A stretch of DNA of 48,732 nt from positions 44,457 to 93,188 of the forward strand of contig NZ_KI914644.1 of assembly GCF_000520495.1 (NCBI RefSeq), written 5' to 3'. This DNA comes from Arthrobacter sp. H14 (GTDB lineage Bacteria; Actinomycetota; Actinomycetes; Actinomycetales; Micrococcaceae). Position numbers and translations under genes: made by a program. Shown here in pieces: positions 5,997 through 47,232 of the stretch (position 1 is its first letter; every line of letters starts with the position of its first letter). The notes under the pieces are model-generated. The model made no database searches and was not told where the DNA came from. It saw only the letters and a program-made list of their open reading frames with translations.

Positions 5997-7047
5997 ATTC
6001 TATGCAGCGCGGGCCGGCAGCACACTCGTAGCTGTCCAGGAACGCCAGTGCCCCGGTGGACTGGTCGATCTGATAGACGGACAACCGGCTGGACACTTCG
6101 CCGCACGTCAGCAGGTATTGGCCATCCGGGGTGATATTCATGCCGCGTGGCTGGGTTTCGGTGGGGAACGAGTCCAGGTAGCTGAGCTGGCCGCTGCCGC
6201 CGTCGACCGCGAATGCCGTGATGGTGCTGCTGGACCGTTCCGTGGTGTAGAGGAACCGGTTATCCGGTGTCAGCCGCAGTTCCGCACACCAGATTGCGTC
6301 CGGACCGGGTTTGGGAACGGATCCGTCGCGGACCCGTCCGCGGATGAGCTGCAGGTGTTCGGGGACGGAGGAAACGGACTGGATTTCCGTGAGCGAGCCG
6401 GTGCCGGCGTCGCGTTCGAAAACAGTGACGGTCCCGGCCATCTCGTGCAGCACATAGACGTGGATTCCGGAGCTGGAGAAGCGCAGGTGCCGGGGGCCGC
6501 TGCCCGGCTGGGAGGCCGCCGTGCCGCCGTCGTCCAGCTTTCCTGTTGTGGCATCGAAGCTCCACCAAGCGGTCAGATCGTCGCCGAGGGCTGTCGCATA
6601 CACGTACTTGTTGTCGGGCGAGGGGAGCACGGTGTGGGCATGCCGGCCGGGAATGACCTTGCCAGTCCGCGCGCCGGTGGCCACGCCATCGTCGATGCTG
6701 CTGACCGTCACGACGTCATCATTATAGGAAGCCGCGAGCAGATGTGTGCCGTTGCGGTCGGGGGCCAGGTACGCCATCGACGCGGCCAAGGGCGCCGTAC
6801 CTGCCTGGTGGAGTCTGGAACCTGCGGCTGAGCCTGAACCTGAAGCCTGAAGGGAGACCACGCTCGGCGGATCCGAACGGACGGCGGCGTACAGCATGCT
6901 TCCGTCCGGGGCGGTCGCCAGCCACTGGACCTCGTTCCCGGCCTGGAACCGGCCATGGCCTGACAGCACCCCTTTGTCGAGGTCGAGCTCAAACGTATCG
7001 ATCGATTTCCCCGCGGCACAGCCAACATAGACGGCGACAGAACTCAC
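5977..7047 (-). CDS. Beta-propeller lactonase family protein
   Basis: A 356-residue protein of the seven-bladed 6-phosphogluconolactonase (Pgl)/YbhE family. Each blade shows a repeated pattern such as YVYATALGDD, FLYTTERSSSTITAFAVD and YLLTCGEVSSRLSVYQID. The late GPRHLRFS and LRLTPDNRFLYTTER stretches are typical. Proteins of this family hydrolyse 6-phosphogluconolactone or act as less defined cytoplasmic propellers; no signal peptide is present. The GTG start at 7047 is preceded by GGGAGG with 5 nt spacing; the frame continues upstream, but those residues look like read-through of non-coding DNA. It overlaps the convergent AEC gene by 20 bp. Confidence 0.85.
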   Translation of the reverse strand: MSSVAVYVGCAAGKSIDTFELDLDKGVLSGHGRFQAGNEVQWLATAPDGSMLYAAVRSDPPSVVSLQASGSGSAAGSRLHQAGTAPLAASMAYLAPDRNGTHLLAASYNDDVVTVSSIDDGVATGARTGKVIPGRHAHTVLPSPDNKYVYATALGDDLTAWWSFDATTGKLDDGGTAASQPGSGPRHLRFSSSGIHVYVLHEMAGTVTVFERDAGTGSLTEIQSVSSVPEHLQLIRGRVRDGSVPKPGPDAIWCAELRLTPDNRFLYTTERSSSTITAFAVDGGSGQLSYLDSFPTETQPRGMNITPDGQYLLTCGEVSSRLSVYQIDQSTGALAFLDSYECAAGPRCIEFSPESA

Positions 7048-11190: not shown

Positions 11191-12216
11191 TTACGACGTC
11201 GGGCCCAGCTGGCTGTCGTCCTTGCCATCCGGATTGCCGCTCCCGGCGAAGACGGTGTTGTTGCCGTCCCTGATGACGGCCTGGTTGACCAGCGGGATAT
11301 GAAGGCCGGCCTCGTCGAGTTCTGCCTTCAAGCGGGCGCGCATCTCGCGGGCAACGCCCCACTGTTCCAGCGGCTTGGTCCGGAGCACCAGGCGAATGGT
11401 GATTGATTCGCCGCTCAGGGCCTGCACGCCCCAGACTTCAGGTTCATCCAGGATGAGGCGGCGCCATTGCCGGTCCATCCGCATCTTTTTAGCAGCCTGA
11501 AGGATGAGATCGCTGACCTGCTCGAGGTCGGAATAATACGGAATCGGGATATCGAGGACGGCACGCGCCCAGCCCTGCGAGAAGTTGCCCACACGCATTA
11601 CTTCGCCATTGCGGACGTGCCACAGCGTGCCATCGAGATCGCGGAGCTGGGTCACCCTCAAACCGACATTCTCGACTTCGCCGGAAGCATCTCCCAAGTC
11701 GACATAGTCGCCGATCCCATACTGGTCCTCGGCAACCATGAACAGCCCCGAAATATAATCCTTGACCAGCGCCTGGGCGCCGAAACCAAGTGCGACGCCG
11801 ACGATACCGGCGCTCGCCAGCACCGGGGCCATATCGAAGCCAAGCTCGGACATAACCATCAGCAGGACCAGCGCGGTGATCACGATAGTGGACAGCGAAC
11901 GCAGCACTGAGCCGACGGTTTTGGCGCGCTGGGCCCTTCGCGCGTTCGCCAACGGCGAATCCTGAATGAGCCAGTGCCTGGTCTCTTGTGCCTGACCGGT
12001 TTCTGCAGGCACCACCTCATTGTCCAGCTTTGCGGCGTCGCCCTTGGCTATGTGGTCCATGGCCCGGCGGATGATCATCCGCAGGATCAGGTTCAGCACA
12101 ATGCCGGCAACAATGATGATCGCGATGCGCAGCGGCTTGTCGAGGAGGAAGTCCCAAATCCCCGAAGCGGCAACCCCCGCGCTCTCGACTGCGTCCTGTG
12201 CCGTATTTTCGTCCAT
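11191..12216 (-). CDS. MscS-family small-conductance mechanosensitive channel
   Basis: A 341-residue MscS-type channel. Three hydrophobic segments occur at about residues 29-49, 106-126 and 130-150. The third, pore-lining one (VLASAGIVGVALGFGAQALVKDYISGLFM) has the Gly/Ala packing pattern of MscS TM3. The beta domain follows with YGIGDYVDLGDASGEVENVGLRVT and VRNGEVMRVGNFSQGW, then the cytoplasmic vestibule domain. It would release solutes on hypo-osmotic shock. There is no clear Shine-Dalgarno; TAACCT lies 7 nt before the ATG, so the mRNA may be leaderless. It is a monocistronic unit. Confidence 0.92.
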   Translation of the reverse strand: MDENTAQDAVESAGVAASGIWDFLLDKPLRIAIIIVAGIVLNLILRMIIRRAMDHIAKGDAAKLDNEVVPAETGQAQETRHWLIQDSPLANARRAQRAKTVGSVLRSLSTIVITALVLLMVMSELGFDMAPVLASAGIVGVALGFGAQALVKDYISGLFMVAEDQYGIGDYVDLGDASGEVENVGLRVTQLRDLDGTLWHVRNGEVMRVGNFSQGWARAVLDIPIPYYSDLEQVSDLILQAAKKMRMDRQWRRLILDEPEVWGVQALSGESITIRLVLRTKPLEQWGVAREMRARLKAELDEAGLHIPLVNQAVIRDGNNTVFAGSGNPDGKDDSQLGPTS

Positions 12217-38262: not shown

Positions 38263-39702
38263 GTGAACCCTCCCGAGCTGAGCCACGACGAGATCCAGTC
38301 GTGCCTGAAAGTCCTCAACGCCATCCACGTCTACGACGAGGAGCACCCGGACTATGTCCGGGTGCGGCAGGCGACGGGAAAGATGTTTAAGGCGGTGAAG
38401 CGGCACCGGCGCAACGTCAAGCGGGACGCCGCCAATGAGGCCGACAGAGCCGTGATGGCGCTGACTGCGACTGCGGCTCCGGACCGCATTGACGACGAGA
38501 CGCGCGGCAACAAGCTCGCGCCTTCGACGACGGGGCACAGCGCGGGCACTTTGACGCGGTCGCGGCCCTGCTATATCTGCAAGCAGCACTATACGCAGGT
38601 GGATGCGTTTTACCACCAGCTCTGCCCGGCGTGCGCCGAATTCAGCCACGGCAAGCGGGATGCCAGGACAGACCTCACTGGCCGCCGCGCCCTGCTCACG
38701 GGCGGTCGCGCCAAGATTGGCATGTACATTGCGCTGCGGCTGCTGCGGGACGGCGCCCACACCACGATCACCACACGCTTCCCGAAGGACGCCGCTCGTC
38801 GCTTCGCGGGCATGGAGGACAGCACCGACTGGCTGCACCGGCTGCGCATTGTGGGCATCGACCTGCGCGATCCGTCCCAGGTGATCTCCCTGACCGATTC
38901 CTTGAACGAGGCCGGTCCACTGGACATTCTGATCAACAACGCCGCGCAGACGGTGCGGCGGTCCGGGAACGCCTATCAACCGCTGGTGGAGGCCGAACTG
39001 GAGCCACTGCCCACCGACAGGCCGATGCCGGAGCTGCTCTCCTTCGGCCACACCCAGGACAAACACCCACTGGCTTTGACCGCCCAAATGGCGGAGCACC
39101 CGAAAATGGCCGGCGATGAAGTAGCCGCGCTGGCCCTGTCCTTGGGATCGACATCCCCGGAGCGTATCGCCGCTGGAAACGCCATCGACGCCGGTGGCTT
39201 GGCTCCGGACCTGCATACAGCCAACAGCTGGACCCAGGTGGTTGAAGAGGTGGGCCCGCTGGAAATGCTGGAGGTGCAGCTTGCCAACGTGACCGCGCCT
39301 TTTCTTCTGGTGTCCCGGCTCCGGCCCGCGATGCGCCGTTCGATGGCCCGTCGCAAGTACATCGTCAACGTCTCCGCTATGGAGGGTCAGTTCTCCCGCG
39401 CCTACAAGGGCCCGGGGCATCCACACACCAACATGGCCAAGGCGTCTCTGAACATGTTGACCAGGACCAGCGCTAAGGAAATGCTGGAAGCCGACGACAT
39501 CCTGATGACGGCGGTTGACACCGGCTGGATTACCGACGAACGTCCGCACTACACCAAGGTCCGCCTGGCGGATGAGGGCTTTAAGGCCCCGCTGGACCTG
39601 GTCGACGGTGCTGCCCGGGTCTACGACCCCATCGTGATGGGCGAAGCAGGCGAGGACCAGCACGGCGTCTTCCTCAAGGATTACAAGCCCAGTCCCTGGT
39701 AG
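38263..39702 (+). CDS. SDR-family protein with zinc-ribbon-like N-terminal domain
   Basis: A 479-residue protein, nearly twice a normal SDR. Residues 1-130 are a separate domain with a Cys4 motif, Cys103, Cys106, Cys121 and Cys124, spaced like a zinc ribbon. The SDR part begins with LLTGGRAKIGMYIALRLL (145-162) and has ILINNAAQ (222-229). About 100 residues are inserted before ANVTAPFLLVSRLRPAM. Catalytic Ser371 is present (VNVSAMEG) and the Lys is at 393, but the usual Tyr four residues earlier is Thr389 (HTNMAK); Tyr381 is nearby. It may use a changed mechanism or act non-enzymatically. GTG 38263 is probably leaderless. Confidence 0.83.
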   Translation: MNPPELSHDEIQSCLKVLNAIHVYDEEHPDYVRVRQATGKMFKAVKRHRRNVKRDAANEADRAVMALTATAAPDRIDDETRGNKLAPSTTGHSAGTLTRSRPCYICKQHYTQVDAFYHQLCPACAEFSHGKRDARTDLTGRRALLTGGRAKIGMYIALRLLRDGAHTTITTRFPKDAARRFAGMEDSTDWLHRLRIVGIDLRDPSQVISLTDSLNEAGPLDILINNAAQTVRRSGNAYQPLVEAELEPLPTDRPMPELLSFGHTQDKHPLALTAQMAEHPKMAGDEVAALALSLGSTSPERIAAGNAIDAGGLAPDLHTANSWTQVVEEVGPLEMLEVQLANVTAPFLLVSRLRPAMRRSMARRKYIVNVSAMEGQFSRAYKGPGHPHTNMAKASLNMLTRTSAKEMLEADDILMTAVDTGWITDERPHYTKVRLADEGFKAPLDLVDGAARVYDPIVMGEAGEDQHGVFLKDYKPSPW

Positions 39703-39835
39703 GGCGCGGTCCCGGGCTGGTTCTCATGCCGCACCGCTGCCTCCAAGGCCTCGGCGCGCCATGTGGCACTCTCAGGTTTAATCTCCGCAGCTATGCTTCC
39801 ACAGCTTGTCGGGTGTTGTGACGACGTTCTCAATT

Positions 39836-41017
39836 TTAGAGACGCTCCAACGCCCAATCCCAGTTGATGTGTTCTTGTTCCAGCCGGACGGCGGGCCCAT
39901 AGGAGTCATTTCGAAGCGACTCATACACCGTCAACTCCTCCGGAGCGAGCCGGGTCAGGATCGCGCGTGAGGGGTTCGGCTCCTGGCCCCAAAGATTGCG
40001 GTGAGCCAGCAACGTTTCCGTGTCCATGAGGATGGAGTGCACATGTGGATGGCCGGAACGCAACTGATCGAGAATCCGGAAACCGTGAGTGTCCAGGTCG
40101 CCCCAATACAGCACATCACAATTGCGGAGCCACTCGGCTTCATCCACTGCCGAGAAGCCGTAGCCGGCTCCAAACACAGCGAGCGTCCTTGGCCGTGCGG
40201 GTAGGGAAAGGAAGTTGACCAGGTTCTCGGTCACGATGACGGCATCCACGTCCGGTGCGAGGTTCCTGAAGCCCTCCGCCGTTACGGTGATGTCCCGGAC
40301 TGCACCCAACAGTTCCGACTCCGGATCCAACAGGCGGAAACGTACCCGCTCCGGCGCGGCCAGGAAACCGTGCCGGCTTGCGAAACTGGACCCAGGCCGG
40401 CCGCGTTCGGGTTCCAGCGCCGTGACCATCTCGTCAATGGTCCGGCGTCGGGTTTCAACGAACTTCGTGTGCACACCGGCCAGGCTGAGCTGACGGAGGT
40501 AGATGCCGGGTGCGGGATTGTCGCGGAACCACACGGCGACGGCGGCCGCCGTGAGTGCATCCTCGCTGAGTTCGAGCAATTGCAGTGGCCGCCTGACCGC
40601 CCACACCTGGAGCGCCGGTTCGATTCCCTCGATCCGGGAGGCGAGGTCGAGGAACGTTCGCGCCTGTCGTGATTTGCCGATAAAAGCAATTTCGTCTTCG
40701 GCCGTGGCGAAGACGGCAGCGGACGGAACGTCGTTGGCTCCGATCGTGTTCCGCCCGACTGCTGCGGTGGAGATGGAGAAGTCGCCGGCACCACCGTGGA
40801 GCTCCGCCGCCCAGGCTCGAGCCGCAGGATAGCTGTCCCGCAGCTCCTTCGCGGTGGGATGTTTCAGCGGTCGACGGCGGGGGTAGGTGTCGTCCGTGGG
40901 CGCCAGCAATTGGCGAAGGAGGGCACCAGTTTCCCAGGCCTTGCGGGACTGCGTCCGTAGGGCGGCCAAAGTGGTCCAACCGTGGACGGATGGGGCGGGA
41001 GCCGCGTTAGCCGCCAC
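39836..41017 (-). CDS. jetD: Wadjet defence protein JetD, Toprim-domain nuclease subunit
   Basis: A 393-residue protein of the DUF3322/DUF2220 families that make up JetD. The C-terminal Toprim-like active site shows Glu264 (VIVTENLVNF) and Asp307/Asp309 (YWGDLDTHGF), with EQEHINW at 380-386 near the end. In Wadjet complexes JetD cleaves plasmid DNA after the JetABC motor has extruded the loops. The GTG start at 41017 overlaps the jetC stop by 11 nt. It is the last gene of jetABCD. All predicted active-site acids are kept, so the nuclease looks functional. Confidence 0.93.
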   Translation of the reverse strand: MAANAAPAPSVHGWTTLAALRTQSRKAWETGALLRQLLAPTDDTYPRRRPLKHPTAKELRDSYPAARAWAAELHGGAGDFSISTAAVGRNTIGANDVPSAAVFATAEDEIAFIGKSRQARTFLDLASRIEGIEPALQVWAVRRPLQLLELSEDALTAAAVAVWFRDNPAPGIYLRQLSLAGVHTKFVETRRRTIDEMVTALEPERGRPGSSFASRHGFLAAPERVRFRLLDPESELLGAVRDITVTAEGFRNLAPDVDAVIVTENLVNFLSLPARPRTLAVFGAGYGFSAVDEAEWLRNCDVLYWGDLDTHGFRILDQLRSGHPHVHSILMDTETLLAHRNLWGQEPNPSRAILTRLAPEELTVYESLRNDSYGPAVRLEQEHINWDWALERL

Positions 41018-44000
41018 GGCGGTCCCGTTCCTGGCGGTATTCCTGAATGGTCATATTGCGCAGCTGGGAATCGTCGCCGTTCTTGTTGGCCACGAATCCC
41101 ACGTTCGCGACGAAGGGCTCAATCACGTGGATTTTCTGCAGCGGTGTCACGATCAGCAGCTGCAGTTTCATCCTCTTGAACAGCTCGAGCCCGTATTTCG
41201 CCGATTCATCCGAGCCGCGTCCGAATGCCTCATCGATAACGACGAATCGGAAACTGCGGCCGCTGCTGCTCTTGCTCAGAGATGAGGCAAGTCCGAACTG
41301 GAACGCCAAGGCAGCGGCGAGGATGGTGTAGGCGAGCTTCTCCTTCTGGCCACCGGATTTTCCGCCGGAGTCGGTGAAATGTTCGTGTTCCTCACCGGTC
41401 TCGGTCCATTTCTCGGAGGCGGAGAAGACGAACCAGTTCCGTACGTCGCTCACCTTTGTGGCCCAGCGGTTGTCCAGTGCCGTCAGTCCCTCACGGCCAC
41501 GGAACCGTTCCACGAGCTTTTCGACCTGCAGGAACTTTTGCTCCGAGTACTGGTCGTCATCGCCAAGTGTTCCTTCCGAACATGCCCGCAGGTCGGCGCC
41601 AAAGTCGCGCACATCGGCGTCGGACGTGTTCTGGTGCTCAAGCTGGATGTGCCGGCCGGGGTTGTATTCGATGGTGGCCAATGAGCGGTTGATTTCCGCT
41701 ATACGGTTGGCAATATCCTGCCTGCGCGATTCGAGGAAGGCGTTGAAGGCGACCACTTCGTGAATGGTGTTCTGATTCAGCGACTCTTTGAAGTGCTCCT
41801 CGAAGCGTGGTAAGTCATTGTCAACAAGCTGGTTCAGCAGCCGGTTGTACTCTCCGGCGGCGTCCAGTGCCGCATCGACCTCTGTAGTCTCGTTCGGATA
41901 TTTGTTCCGGAATGCCTGCATGAGACCGACTGTCCGTTCGCCCGAGCGGGCGATCTGTTTGTTGAGCGAGTCGATAGTCGTGCTGAGAGCGTTGCGGATA
42001 CCGCTTGCGATCTTTTCCGTATTTTTGTACGTGAGCGTGGTGTCGGCGAGTGCGTCAGCAGCGAGCCGTTCCAAGTCCTCCAGCAGCCCTTTATCTTCAG
42101 TCAGAGGCGTTTCCGCAAGAATGGATTGGCAGTCCTCGATCATTTCAGCGATTTCTTTGGTGGCACCTTCATTGGCGCCGATCCGCTTCTGGATCTTTTC
42201 CATCTGATTTTCGGCCCGGTGCAGGCGCGACTGGGTGTCGTATTCTGCCGCAGCGAGCTTCTGCAGGACATCGTTGGCCGCTTCGAGGGAGGATTTCTCT
42301 GTTTTCAGACCCTCAATCCGGTGGGCGGTGAGTTGCCAGCTGACTTCCGAGAATTCCTTGACGCTGGAGATTGTCCCCAGATGCCGGTGTTGCTGCCCCA
42401 GCTGGCCGAGGGCGGAATCGACCTTTGTCAGCTCGGCGTCAGTTGCCCGCACCTGCCCTTCGAGTGCTTCCAGGTCTGTTTGGAAGCCGGTGATTTTTGC
42501 GTGGTTGTCCCAGCCCAGGACGAAATTCCGCCGGTCGTTCAAGTCCCGCCGGTCGTCCTTCTCGTGCCTGCCACGTCCACCCTTGAGCTGACCGTTGAGG
42601 GTCAGTGCCTTCGGATAGCGACGGAAATCGTCGAGCGACTCGCAGCACATGTGGTCGAAACGGTGGTTCAGCTCGTCGAGCAGGTACTCGCGGAAACCCG
42701 TTCCAGGTTTGATGGCGATCTTGGATGCCAGGGTTCCTGGCTCCGGGGGCCGTCCCGGGCTCGTCTGCCCGATTTTCAGGTAGACCAGCCGCGTCCGCAA
42801 GTTATTTTCGTCCACCCATTTGCTGACGGCTGGATAGTGTTCTGTGGGGACCAGCATCGACAATGCGAATCCGTGAAGAGTGCGTTCTGCCGCGCCTTCC
42901 CATTCCCCTTCGCCATCCCGCACCCGGAGCAACTCGCCGCCGAAGGGCAGATCCGGTTCGCGGATCCCGGTGCCTTCGCACAGGCGACGACGCAGTTCCA
43001 GTTGCGGACGCGGAAGCAGGTTCTGCCGGGACTGAAGACTTTTCAGCTCCGCCCGGATCTCCCCGGCACTGTACGCGTCCTCATTGCGTCTCATTGTCAA
43101 CCGGGTGCGGCGCTCCTGCAGATCGCTGTTCTGTGCCTGCAGCGATTTCTCCACTGCAGGCAAGCCGGCGGAATTCTTATCGAAGAGCACCTGATCTTCC
43201 GGAACGTGCAGCTCCAGGGCCTCTGCGGCCACCGCATAGCGTTCGAAACGGGAACGCTGTACAGCCGATTCTTCACTCAACCTGGCGATCTCGGCGTCAA
43301 TCGCCGCCAGCCTCCCACCTCCGTTGGTGCGGATATCCTCCTGCAGGTTTGTTAGCTCATGGCGCAGCCGCGAGATGTCCCCGGCGAGCTTTTTGCGGTC
43401 GGACTCCAGCCGCGTGCCGGTTCTCTCGAGTTCCGTCTGATGCTCCAGGCTTAGGTCCAGCCGTCGTGTGGTGAAGAAGGGATGCAACTGGTCGCGCTGG
43501 TCGCGGCCACGCTGTTCCCGCTCCTCGAGTTCGGCATGCCTGGCGGCGCCATCCCGGATCGGTGTCAGCAGGGCAACCTGGTCCTTCGCCCGCAGGACGG
43601 CGCCGTGGGCCTTTTTCAAGTCATCGAAATGATGGATCAGATTGTCGATCCTTGTGGCCACATCGTCCTGCTCGAGCATGTTGGTGCGCACGAAGTGGGT
43701 GATATTTTCCACCTGTTTCATGGACACCGTGCGGTGGAACAGATCCATTGCCTGACTGCCGGTAATGCCGAATTGGCGTTTGAAGGCAGCAGCATATGGG
43801 TCGAAGGAATCATGGACGGCGGCGCCCGCCGCCCGCAGCCTTTTCTTCAGCTTGGCGGGCTCCTGTTCGAAGTTGGAGAAATCCGCCATGATGGACTGTT
43901 CCTCCTGGGCCAGGGAGTAGAAGCGGTTCGGTTGGCCCGATTCCTGTGGTGCCCACAGGGTGATCGCAAGACTGACAGACTTGTCGAGTTCAGCATTGTA

Positions 44001-44396
44001 GAACACTCCGAGGACCACCGAGTATGAACCCGGCCCGCGGAGTGCCACGGGTTTGGAATATTCGCCGGCCGTCGTTCGCGCACTCTTGTGGTAGCCGCGC
44101 ACGTACGACATCAGGCTGCGTTCCTTCTTTTGAGCACCCGCTGCCTTGTTGTAATCGATCTTGTTGGCTGGCAGCAGCAGGGTGGTGATGGCGTCCACCA
44201 CCGTGGATTTGCCGGAGCCTATGTCTCCAGTCAAAAGACTGTTGTCACCGTCGAGGGTGAAGGTGCGTACGCCTTGATGGAACGTGCCCCAGTTGAGAAG
44301 CTCGAGCCGGTGCAGTCGGAACCCCGGGGGTGGGCCGTCGTCGTCGTTCTTGACTTCATCCAGGCTGAACAGGCCTGCCTGCAGTTCCGTGGTCAT
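41007..44396 (-). CDS. jetC: Wadjet defence protein JetC, SMC/MukB-like ATPase
   Basis: A 1129-residue SMC-like motor. The Walker A loop GDIGSGKST is at 57-65. The long middle is mostly charged coiled coil broken by a hinge-like globular part (about residues 480-640). The ABC signature KSGGQ is at 1013-1017 and Walker B VVIDEA at 1052-1057, followed by the TPLQKIHVIEPFVANVGFV segment shared with the DUF4194/3375-linked ATPases. It hydrolyses ATP to extrude DNA loops and sense small circular plasmids. ATG 44396 overlaps the jetB stop by 4 nt. The ATPase motifs are intact. Confidence 0.95.
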   Translation of the reverse strand: MTTELQAGLFSLDEVKNDDDGPPPGFRLHRLELLNWGTFHQGVRTFTLDGDNSLLTGDIGSGKSTVVDAITTLLLPANKIDYNKAAGAQKKERSLMSYVRGYHKSARTTAGEYSKPVALRGPGSYSVVLGVFYNAELDKSVSLAITLWAPQESGQPNRFYSLAQEEQSIMADFSNFEQEPAKLKKRLRAAGAAVHDSFDPYAAAFKRQFGITGSQAMDLFHRTVSMKQVENITHFVRTNMLEQDDVATRIDNLIHHFDDLKKAHGAVLRAKDQVALLTPIRDGAARHAELEEREQRGRDQRDQLHPFFTTRRLDLSLEHQTELERTGTRLESDRKKLAGDISRLRHELTNLQEDIRTNGGGRLAAIDAEIARLSEESAVQRSRFERYAVAAEALELHVPEDQVLFDKNSAGLPAVEKSLQAQNSDLQERRTRLTMRRNEDAYSAGEIRAELKSLQSRQNLLPRPQLELRRRLCEGTGIREPDLPFGGELLRVRDGEGEWEGAAERTLHGFALSMLVPTEHYPAVSKWVDENNLRTRLVYLKIGQTSPGRPPEPGTLASKIAIKPGTGFREYLLDELNHRFDHMCCESLDDFRRYPKALTLNGQLKGGRGRHEKDDRRDLNDRRNFVLGWDNHAKITGFQTDLEALEGQVRATDAELTKVDSALGQLGQQHRHLGTISSVKEFSEVSWQLTAHRIEGLKTEKSSLEAANDVLQKLAAAEYDTQSRLHRAENQMEKIQKRIGANEGATKEIAEMIEDCQSILAETPLTEDKGLLEDLERLAADALADTTLTYKNTEKIASGIRNALSTTIDSLNKQIARSGERTVGLMQAFRNKYPNETTEVDAALDAAGEYNRLLNQLVDNDLPRFEEHFKESLNQNTIHEVVAFNAFLESRRQDIANRIAEINRSLATIEYNPGRHIQLEHQNTSDADVRDFGADLRACSEGTLGDDDQYSEQKFLQVEKLVERFRGREGLTALDNRWATKVSDVRNWFVFSASEKWTETGEEHEHFTDSGGKSGGQKEKLAYTILAAALAFQFGLASSLSKSSSGRSFRFVVIDEAFGRGSDESAKYGLELFKRMKLQLLIVTPLQKIHVIEPFVANVGFVANKNGDDSQLRNMTIQEYRQERDRRGG

Positions 44397-45010
44397 ACGG
44401 TTGCCTCTTTAGTCTTGGCACTGGAGCCGCCATCAAGTGAAGCCCGGTAGTCGGCCAGCCGGGAGTCGAACTCCTCCAGCCACTGGGCATCCACGTAGGC
44501 TTTGAGAATCCGGGCGACTTCGTAGGTGCCGGCCTGTCCGCGCATCCGGCGAAGGAAGCCCAGCTCCACTACCTTTTTGATATCGGAGCCGAGCCTGTCG
44601 AGAATCCGGGCCTCGTTGCTCGATTCCGGGAGGAAGACCGAGATCATATCTTCGATTTCCGTCTCGGTCATGACAAGTCGGGTTTCGCTGCTGTTGGCGT
44701 CGAATTCGGCGAGCTTTGCACGCAGCAGCGCCAGTAGCAGGCTGACATTGAACGTCAGCTGCCGGCGTGGAACGAGTCGGGGGAGTGCGGCGTCGCTCTC
44801 TTCCCTGGACCGGAGAAAAGCGTAGCCTTCCGTCTCGTCGAGAATGAGCTCCAGGCCCAGTACGGAAACGTAATCCCGCACATGGGAAGCCAACTCCAGA
44901 AGGGCCTGCCACACCTTGCCGTCCGATTCCGCATAGACGACACCTTTGAACAAGCGGGTGACGATGACCGGCAGTTCCTCTGGATGGCCGGTTTCGGATT
45001 CGCTGCTCAA
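44393..45010 (-). CDS. jetB: Wadjet defence protein JetB (DUF4194, MukE-like)
   Basis: A 205-residue DUF4194 protein, the MukE-like kite subunit of the Wadjet motor. VTRLFKGVVYAESDGKVWQ, LGLELILDETEGYAFLRSR and RLVPRRQLTFNVSLLLALLRAKL are typical of the winged-helix kite domains. ILDRLGSDIKKVVELGFLRRM forms the second. It bridges JetA and JetC. ATG 45010 overlaps the jetA stop by 4 nt, and its own stop overlaps jetC by 4 nt, so subunit synthesis is tightly coupled. Confidence 0.93.
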   Translation of the reverse strand: MSSESETGHPEELPVIVTRLFKGVVYAESDGKVWQALLELASHVRDYVSVLGLELILDETEGYAFLRSREESDAALPRLVPRRQLTFNVSLLLALLRAKLAEFDANSSETRLVMTETEIEDMISVFLPESSNEARILDRLGSDIKKVVELGFLRRMRGQAGTYEVARILKAYVDAQWLEEFDSRLADYRASLDGGSSAKTKEATV

Positions 45011-46449
45011 GATGGCCTCACAAAGATGATCTGTTCAATGGTGGCTTCACGCAGACTGCCGTCCGGCATTGCCCACGATAATTGCTGTGTGTGGTCGGAG
45101 TTAATCGTGGCCCAGGGCGAGTCAGTGGCCAATTGGAAGTACGCCACGATCTCCGCCAAACCCTGGGTGAGTGGAAAGGCATCCGTCACGTCCGCGAGAG
45201 TGGCCTGCTCTGCATCTGTCAGCACCGTATCGATGTTCCCACGCAACCGCTCATTGTCGACATAGAACTGCTCGAACAAGGCTCCTGGATCAACATCCGT
45301 ATCGTCGGCGGACAGGATCTCGTCGTCGACCATCACCCGGGAACTGGGCTCGTAGAGCGGACGCTCGAAGGGCAAAGCCACCTCAATGGTCTGGGCAGGC
45401 ACCTCAAGGAAGGTGCCCGACGGCGGGGTGTTGCGGACGGCCAGCGCGTCGCCTTCGATACGCCGGATCAGCTGCATGATGCGCTTGTTCTCCAGGAAGA
45501 CTTTATCGTCGAGCAAGCGGCGCATCTGCTGGGAAAGCTGTCGTACGGTGCTCTGGGTCTGTTCGACGGCAGGAAGCCAGTCCTGGTGCATGCTGGTAAG
45601 GGCATCGACGTTTTCAAGACTGCTCAACGCCTCAATCTGCGTAGCGCGCTCCAACAAGCTCGTCAATTCAGTGCGCAACCGCGGGGACATGAGGTAGTCC
45701 CAGAACCCTTGGAAGGTCCGGCCCTGCGTGGAGCTGCTGATGCCCTGCTGATTCGAAAAAATAGTCTCCAGCAGCTCGCCCTGGCTGCCTTCCCACGTAG
45801 CGATTTGCTCCCGCACTCGACGGTCCAGTCGCCGGAAGTTCTGCTCCACTTCCCGAAAGTCGGCGAGTAAGTCCCGGGCGGTGTCGGTGAGCTGTTGAAA
45901 GTGATCCAGAGCTTCGGGGGTGCTCATCACCTTGATATGGCCTTCGCGGATTTGCTGCATCTCGACGTCGATGGCATCGCGTTGTTTCTGTAGTTCATCC
46001 AGCCGCACATCCGGGTCCGTTTCGGATTGCTGGACCAGCGTCTGCAGCAACTGGAAGATGCTGGTCAACCGCGATTGAGTTGCCACGAAGTCCCGTCCGC
46101 GCAGGTTCTCCACCCAACGGACGACATCCTCGGCCGCCGCGGTGAGATCGTAGACCGGCTCGTCCTGCCCGGGCACATAGTATTTGCGCAGCCAGCTTCT
46201 CTCCGGCGCGGCCCACTCGTCCAGATACTCAGCCGCTGGACGGGGAAACTTATCCTCACCGAGCGAATCGCGAAGCCCGAAGAGAACATCATCGAGGGTG
46301 TCGATCAATGCCTGGCGGGCGATATTGCGGTTGTTGGGCTCGGTGAAAGCAGCCATGAAGAATGCCAGGGCAAGCGGGGCATTTTGTGCGCGCAACAGGG
46401 ACCATCCTGCGTGGTTCTCACGTAACGAATTGATCGCGTAATAGTCCAC
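45007..46449 (-). CDS. jetA: Wadjet defence protein JetA (DUF3375, MukF-like)
   Basis: A 480-residue DUF3375 protein, the MukF-like kleisin of the Wadjet complex. The N-terminal winged-helix domain (YYAINSLRENHAGWSLLRAQNAPLALAFF) is followed by a coiled-coil middle (about residues 150-330) and a C-terminal region that would bind the JetC head. The GTG at 46449 is preferred: GGGGGAGG ends 8 nt upstream, whereas the in-frame GTG at 46458 would overlap that ribosome-binding site. It is the first gene of the operon, and 46450-46563 separates it from the divergent PNPOx-family gene. Confidence 0.93.
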   Translation of the reverse strand: MDYYAINSLRENHAGWSLLRAQNAPLALAFFMAAFTEPNNRNIARQALIDTLDDVLFGLRDSLGEDKFPRPAAEYLDEWAAPERSWLRKYYVPGQDEPVYDLTAAAEDVVRWVENLRGRDFVATQSRLTSIFQLLQTLVQQSETDPDVRLDELQKQRDAIDVEMQQIREGHIKVMSTPEALDHFQQLTDTARDLLADFREVEQNFRRLDRRVREQIATWEGSQGELLETIFSNQQGISSSTQGRTFQGFWDYLMSPRLRTELTSLLERATQIEALSSLENVDALTSMHQDWLPAVEQTQSTVRQLSQQMRRLLDDKVFLENKRIMQLIRRIEGDALAVRNTPPSGTFLEVPAQTIEVALPFERPLYEPSSRVMVDDEILSADDTDVDPGALFEQFYVDNERLRGNIDTVLTDAEQATLADVTDAFPLTQGLAEIVAYFQLATDSPWATINSDHTQQLSWAMPDGSLREATIEQIIFVRPS

Positions 46450-46551
46450 GCTCTTCACCTCCCCCGCGTCGCTTGTGGCTTGCCCTCAATGTTAGGGGTT
46501 GGGTCCGACATTTTCTGCCGGCAGCTACCGGGAGGCCAAGGCGGTGCGGGC

Positions 46552-46563
46552 TAAGATGTGGCC
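46552..46563 (+). promoter_or_regulatory. Leaderless -10 element for the PNPOx-family gene
   Basis: TAAGAT, six bases, ATG 46564 matches leaderless actinobacterial start spacing. An in-frame GTG at 46558 would lie between the -10 and the expected transcript start. Confidence 0.5.
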
Positions 46564-47232
46564 ATGAGAGATTCCGGCCGGTTGCGGCAACTGTTGCGCG
46601 AAGTACAAGTCTTCCCGGAACAGATGTCGGGATTCGATCCGGATCAGACCCCTGACCAACCTGTGGAGTTGTTTCTGCAGTGGCTGGCTGCCGCAGTCGA
46701 CGCCGGGGTTTTGGCTCCGCACGCGGTCAACGTAGCCACCATGGGGGCTGACGGTATGCCGGACGCGCGGATCGTGATTCTCAAAGATATCAGCGACGGA
46801 TGCTGGTGCTTTGCCAGCAGCAGCACGAGTCCCAAGGGCCAGCAACTGCAGGCGGCGCCATCGGTTGCACTGACGTTTTTCTGGCCCTCCGTTGGGCGCC
46901 AGATCAGGATCAGGGGCCGCGTGCACGTGGGTTCGCCGGTCGAGAACGATCAGGACTTCAAGCGTCGGAATTTGGTTGCGAAGGCGTTGGTGCTTGCCGG
47001 GCAGCAAAGTGACGTTATGCAGAGGACGGATGACCTCGACGATGCAGTTGCCGGTGCCAGGGCCCAGTTTGATGTTGATCCGGAAACCGGTTCACCATCC
47101 TGGACTGTTTACAAGGTCACGGCGCAGACTGTGGAGTTCTGGCAGGCGGACCCTGACCGCCGCCATATTAGACTGCGCTACAGCCGCAACGATGGACACA
47201 GCGCGTGGAGAAAAGACCTGCTCTGGCCGTGA
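46564..47232 (+). CDS. Pyridoxamine 5'-phosphate oxidase family protein
   Basis: A 222-residue FMN-binding split-barrel protein of the PNPOx/PhzG type. NVATMGADGMPDARIVILKDI, FASSSTSPKGQQL and QIRIRGRVHVGSP are the FMN-binding strands, and the C-terminal RLRYSRNDGHSAWRKDLLWP matches the PNPOx dimerisation tail that in PdxH binds the substrate phosphate. It may make pyridoxal phosphate or oxidise another small molecule. The conserved tail ends in LLWP rather than the PdxH RLAP, so the housekeeping role is uncertain. Probably leaderless. Confidence 0.85.
   Translation: MRDSGRLRQLLREVQVFPEQMSGFDPDQTPDQPVELFLQWLAAAVDAGVLAPHAVNVATMGADGMPDARIVILKDISDGCWCFASSSTSPKGQQLQAAPSVALTFFWPSVGRQIRIRGRVHVGSPVENDQDFKRRNLVAKALVLAGQQSDVMQRTDDLDDAVAGARAQFDVDPETGSPSWTVYKVTAQTVEFWQADPDRRHIRLRYSRNDGHSAWRKDLLWP

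What the first reader, a model, noticed from the sequence alone, without database searches (positions are those of the whole stretch)
39836..46449. Complete jetABCD (Wadjet) anti-plasmid system
All four subunits are present and overlapping: kleisin JetA, kite JetB, SMC ATPase JetC with intact Walker A (57-65), signature (1013-1017) and Walker B (1052-1057), and Toprim nuclease JetD with Glu264, Asp307 and Asp309. This is a known defence type; an intact copy is of interest for plasmid handling in this strain.
Basis: partly seen in the sequence, partly recalled or inferred. Interest (0 to 1): 0.75.

Follow-up and report, generated by a model that had tools for sequence, protein, structure and literature searches.

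The report
Ordinary complete type I Wadjet operon
This bacterium, probably a relative of Arthrobacter, carries a complete and apparently intact copy of Wadjet, a known defence machine that finds and cuts small circular plasmids; it is a sound but ordinary example of a system common in its phylum.

Summary
On the minus strand, 39836-46449, lie four intact genes: jetA (DUF3375), jetB (DUF4194), jetC (SMC ATPase) and jetD (DUF3322 + JetD_C Toprim). Each overlaps the next, with no N and no internal stop. Every Jet model they match in PADLOC is a type I (Jet1) model, JetC nearly end to end (1411.6 bits). All four are related to solved Wadjet chains, JetB only weakly. The ATPase motifs and JetD's acidic residues are intact and identical in the 8 relatives aligned. 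JetD Glu264 aligns with the residue mutated in JetD(E248A) (PDB 8q72) and with C. glutamicum MksG E236. Distribution is patchy: DUF3375 in 23 of 58 other genomes searched, JetD_C in 69 of 294 others of the family, fragments included. Wadjet is published as present in 42% of Actinobacteria (PMC10482375 passage). Two small branch features: JetB lacks the IFDR motif reported for another type I system, and JetD keeps the tyrosine proposed as catalytic in MksG.

The parts
45007..46449 (-). jetA (kleisin, MukF/MksF-like, DUF3375), GTG start; alternative GTG at 46458
   Evidence: PF11855 456.5 bits, cut-off 28.6; PDLC00457 JetA1 654.3 bits; solved JetA 8q72_E E=1.9e-25; ribosome-site-like run before the start
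44393..45010 (-). jetB (KITE, MukE/MksE-like, DUF4194), TTG start
   Evidence: PF13835 147.8 bits, PF21980 MksE 73.4 bits; PDLC00474 JetB1 304.2 bits; solved JetB 8as8_C E=0.0055 only
41007..44396 (-). jetC (SMC ATPase, MukB/MksB-like); Walker A 57-64, signature SGGQ 1014-1017, Walker B 1051-1056
   Evidence: PDLC00512 JetC1 1411.6 bits over 16-1127 of 1129 aa; 8as8_A JetC E=3.6e-54; motifs
39836..41017 (-). jetD (Toprim nuclease, MksG-like); E264, Y286, D307, D309, E380, E382
   Evidence: PF09983 178.2 bits, PF11795 139.4 bits; PDLC00530 JetD1 444.1 bits; MksG 8b7f E=6.4e-30, JetD(E248A) 8q72 E=1.8e-10; residues

Best explanation
A complete operon for a type I Wadjet complex (JetABCD, the counterpart of MksFEBG) of an actinobacterial branch. 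JetC dimers, held by the kleisin JetA with JetB bound, would extrude DNA loops using ATP. On a small circular DNA the two linked motors would run out of DNA and collide, which would switch on the JetD Toprim dimer to cut the circle. Shown here: four intact genes, family membership, conserved ATPase and nuclease residues, patchy distribution. Inferred from published work on other type I systems: complex formation, loop extrusion, circle-specific cutting, and plasmid restriction in this strain.
For: Family profiles. Sequence relation of all four proteins to solved Wadjet subunits. JetD E264 aligns with the mutated residue 248 of 8q72 and with MksG E236, and D307 with MksG D279; the E236A and D279A mutants of MksG had drastically impaired nuclease activity (PMC10123090 passage). 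JetC K63, S64, S1014, G1015, G1016, Q1017, D1055 and E1056 are identical in 9 of 9 rows; JetD E264, D307, D309, E380 and E382 are identical in 9 of 9 rows (window plus 8 relatives). The mechanism rests on review passages of PMC10586767.
Against: No functional data. JetB's match to solved JetB is weak (E=0.0055), and JetB lacks the literal IFDR motif reported to contact JetD in another type I system. No sigma-70-type promoter stands out (2 found, 1.3 expected from shuffles) and terminator-like sites are near chance (9 found, 7.0 expected) over 39600-46700.
Confidence: 0.96

Rival explanations
1. A housekeeping condensin (MukBEF/MksBEF-like) for chromosome folding, not a plasmid-defence system.
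For: JetB also matches the MksE condensin model (PF21980, 73.4 bits) and JetC weakly matches MukB N-terminal (20.5 bits, under its cut-off of 23).
Against: A jetD nuclease gene with intact Toprim residues overlaps jetC. Distribution is patchy: 23 of 58 other genomes searched have DUF3375, and the only other genome of the genus that is held has no match for JetA's family or for JetC. C. [quoted passage not shown]
Confidence: 0.03
2. A once-working Wadjet now inactive through missense changes or lack of expression.
For: Decay occurs in the family: genome G001 of the same genus holds a C-terminal jetD piece in a 137-aa open frame, and no JetA, JetB or JetC match in the 16 kb fetched around it.
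Against: All four frames are open, overlapping and nearly full length against the profiles, with every catalytic residue examined kept.
Confidence: 0.06

Closest known systems
Corynebacterium glutamicum MksBEFG (type I Wadjet)
   Same: Its nuclease MksG (8b7f) is the best solved relative of JetD. MksG E236, Y258, D279, E349 and E351 correspond to E264, Y286, D307, E380 and E382 here (numbering of the chain counted by hand from the alignment).
   Different: Only JetD/MksG was compared directly; MksB, MksE and MksF, and M. smegmatis EptABCD, were not. MksG cut DNA without MksBEF in vitro at high concentration (PMC10123090 passages); unknown here.
[quoted passage not shown]
   Same: All four subunits related in sequence to solved JetA, JetB, JetC and JetD chains; same ATPase motifs and acidic residues. 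Which chain is from which species is partly recalled.
   Different: JetC is distant (187 bits over about 1100 aa). JetB is 205 aa against 249-250 and has no IFDR. The JetD chains 7til and 8q72 have Leu where this one has Tyr286.
Wadjet operons of three unnamed same-family genomes (L048, L049, L050)
   Same: JetA 72-75%, JetB 69-76%, JetC 66-73%, JetD 55-66% identity, same gene order.
   Different: None of six flanking genes of the window was found beside them, though L049's contig ends about 0.4 kb beyond jetA. The JetD linker is longer by about 40 aa (L048) and about 110 aa (L049).

Membership tests
Wadjet type I (JetABCD) | Four genes jetA, jetB, jetC, jetD in one operon | tested here: met
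Wadjet type I (JetABCD) | All four belong to type I rather than type II/III by sequence | tested here: met
   Every Jet model matched at E<=0.001 is a Jet1 model; JetC's other, weak matches are to LmuB, mad3, PtuA and an ATPase model. That PADLOC also holds type II/III models is recalled, not checked.
Wadjet type I (JetABCD) | JetC with Walker A, ABC signature, Walker B | tested here: met
Wadjet type I (JetABCD) | JetD with DUF3322 N-terminal region and Toprim with conserved acidic residues | tested here: met
Wadjet type I (JetABCD) | IFDR motif at JetB N-terminus (reported for one type I system; not stated to be defining) | tested here: not met
   None of 8 JetB rows (window plus 7 relatives) holds the literal string; L055 was left out because no JetB match was found there
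Wadjet type I (JetABCD) | Cuts small circular DNA, restricts plasmids | not testable with these tools
   needs a bench assay
MukBEF/MksBEF condensin without nuclease | No JetD/MksG gene in the operon | tested here: not met
   jetD present and intact

The most novel reading that the evidence does not exclude
This actinobacterial branch couples motor to nuclease, and cuts DNA, somewhat differently from the solved E. coli and P. aeruginosa systems: its short JetB has no IFDR motif to hold JetD, and JetD carries a tyrosine near the metal site (Tyr286, the counterpart of MksG Tyr258) where those JetDs have leucine.
Probability: 0.2. Interest if true: 0.35.

Novelty: new member of a known kind. Interest (0 to 1): 0.12.

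Why it matters
An intact Wadjet would help explain poor uptake or low copy number of small plasmids in this strain and would argue for removing it before genetic work. For science at large it adds one more member to a well-studied family.

Tried and rejected
A fifth, co-inherited gene beside the operon was sought by comparing open frames of 90 aa or more in the window with those of 10 fetched regions (E<=1e-8, identity 28% or more, 70 residues or more). Eight regions hold Jet genes; L046 (the window's own contig beyond its right end) and L047 (the same-genus genome G001) do not. Between the window and the eight, apart from Jet proteins and frames lying across the Jet genes, only a LacI-type regulator pair (31%) passed. 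Between the window and L047 the PdxH-like and glutaredoxin genes matched. L049, L052 and L054 are short contigs, so little of their flanks was seen. No new component was found.

A defence island was sought: 10 flanking proteins (8 of the window, 2 of L046) against PADLOC gave one match, to a desaturase model, by a protein that Pfam calls a flavin-containing amine oxidoreductase. No island as far as tested; most flanking genes were not scanned against PADLOC.

An empty site in G001 was sought. The right-flank PdxH-like (63%) and glutaredoxin (52%) genes are kept there, but the left-flank SDR gene has no true counterpart (best E=3.2e-6), so no insertion joint can be named.

The own genome has no TrwC relaxase; other plasmid markers were not tried. 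JetD against genome contigs found nothing. The SDR neighbour against the same collection gave 80 kept loci, of which 18 of the first 20 rows are titled Arthrobacter, Paenarthrobacter, Pseudarthrobacter or Micrococcaceae; the other two are titled Sporosarcina beigongshangi and an Acidobacteria MAG. The host is therefore probably of that group, which is an inference.

Paper searches: 'Wadjet, JetABCD, plasmid' listed 11 papers and 'Wadjet, Arthrobacter' 5. Passages only were read of PMC10586767, PMC10123090, PMC10482375 and PMC11719660. PMC9637719, which I recall as the source of the IFDR motif, is not held, so the motif is known here only through the review passage. The review's species attributions and the PADLOC type II/III models are partly recalled.

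Full report
Observation. The minus strand of 39836-46449 holds four long open frames of 480 (or 483), 205, 1129 and 393 aa in the order jetA-jetB-jetC-jetD, each with a single stop at its end and overlapping the next by 4, 4 and 11 bases.

Identity. Pfam: DUF3375 456.5 bits, DUF4194 147.8, JetD_C 178.2, DUF3322 139.4, all over their cut-offs; JetC matches AAA_29 and SbcC_Walker_B over their cut-offs. PADLOC best models: JetA1 654.3, JetB1 304.2, JetC1 1411.6, JetD1 444.1 bits, nearly end to end. JetC also has weak matches to LmuB, mad3, PtuA and an ATPase model, which I read as the shared ATPase head. NCBIfam has no model above its cut-off for any of the four. Solved relatives: JetC 8as8 and 8dk2 (E about 1e-54 to 1e-53), JetA 8q72 (1.9e-25), MksG 8b7f (6.4e-30), JetD 7til (2.2e-12), JetD(E248A) 8q72 (1.8e-10), JetB 8as8 (0.0055, weak).

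Active residues. In the printed alignments JetD Glu264 sits on the position that is Ala in the E248A chain of 8q72 and on MksG E236; Asp307 sits on MksG D279. The MksG numbers follow from setting chain residue 342 of the fusion protein 8b7f to E236, counted by hand; Y258, D279, E349 and E351 then fall on Tyr, Asp, Glu and Glu. The MksG paper reports drastically impaired nuclease activity for E236A and D279A, and drastically reduced activity with a remainder for Y258A (PMC10123090 passages). The counterparts here are E264, D307, Y286, E380 and E382. Among 9 JetD rows (window and 8 relatives) all five and D309 are identical, except that Y286 is Phe in 1 of 9 (L054). Among 9 JetC rows G57, G62, K63 and S64, the SGGQ signature and D1055-E1056 are identical. 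The L052 jetD frame contains a run of 10 N near its start, away from these residues. The C-terminal alignment places SGGQ on SGGE and VVIDEAF on TIILDEAF of solved JetC.

Distribution and surroundings. DUF3375 is found in 24 of 59 genomes searched, own included, that is 23 of 58 others: 16 of 36 of the same genus or family and 7 of 22 of the same order. JetD_C is found in 70 of 295 genomes of the family, own included; this counts fragments such as that of G001. The own genome has one DUF3375 match. The only other genome of the genus that is held lacks DUF3375 and JetC. It keeps the PdxH-like and glutaredoxin neighbours on one contig, and on another it has a lone C-terminal jetD piece, 44% identical over residues 296-393, with no JetA-C match in 16 kb. 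The closest operons (JetA 72-75%) show none of six flanking genes of the window. The operon has 60.2% G+C against 63.1% for the window, a slight difference that proves nothing. JetC relatives occur in 16 PLSDB plasmid records, the best at 66% in a 1.35-Mb record of Arthrobacter sp. StoSoilB13. All this fits a defence module that is gained and lost. Whether the 150,724-base contig that holds the operon is chromosomal was not shown.

Host. No call names it. Its SDR neighbour has its closest named relatives in Arthrobacter, Paenarthrobacter and Pseudarthrobacter (18 of the first 20 rows of 80, Micrococcaceae MAG included), so a member of that group is likely.

In print. A survey reports Wadjet in 42% of Actinobacteria and 7% of other bacteria (PMC10482375 passage). 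A Paenarthrobacter genome is reported with one Wadjet type I of four genes and one Wadjet entry listing JetA, JetB and JetC (PMC11719660 passages).

Mechanism. From the review (PMC10586767 passages): JetABC is the sensor and JetD the effector; the complex cuts circular but not linear DNA without regard to sequence, and needs ATP and a working JetC; circles larger than about 100 kb escape. Total loop extrusion with collision of the two motors is the proposed way of recognising circles. For this strain these steps are inferred from membership.

What differs. JetB is 205 aa against 249-250 in the solved ones. The literal IFDR motif, reported by cross-linking to contact JetD, is in none of 8 JetB rows; L055 was dropped because no JetB match was found there. 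A degenerate equivalent was not excluded. Tyr286 is Leu in the JetD chains 7til and 8q72. These are features of the branch, not of this copy, and the tyrosine is already described as conserved in actinobacterial homologues.

Verdict. The finding is correct and ordinary: a complete type I Wadjet, likely to work, in a group where such systems are frequent.

Noticed in passing
L049:4625-6136 (-), L048:5159-6478 (-): JetD of two close relatives carries extra stretches (about 110 and 40 aa) between the N-terminal region and Toprim, near window JetD residues 202-208; the frames stay open.
   Followed up: partly
L056:7407-7820 (-) (G001:C19): The same-genus genome holds a lone C-terminal jetD piece. 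Partial JetD_C matches also appear in G133, G232, G296, G189 and G083 of the family; these were not looked at.
   Followed up: partly
L057:10528-10944 (+) (G185) and G009:C12:91755-91907 (-): A second, partial JetD_C piece lies about 6 kb (G185) and about 9 kb (G009) from a full-length jetD.
   Followed up: no
L046:190-289, 6806-6905, 12017-12116: Three runs of exactly 100 N in the window's own contig beyond its right end: scaffold gaps, so gene calls there are unsafe.
   Followed up: partly
window:38263-39702 (+): A 479-aa short-chain dehydrogenase with about 130 extra residues before the SDR domain; full-length copies at 65-84% identity in 11 of 38 other genomes, none in the same-genus genome, and many in named Actinobacteria.
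   Followed up: partly
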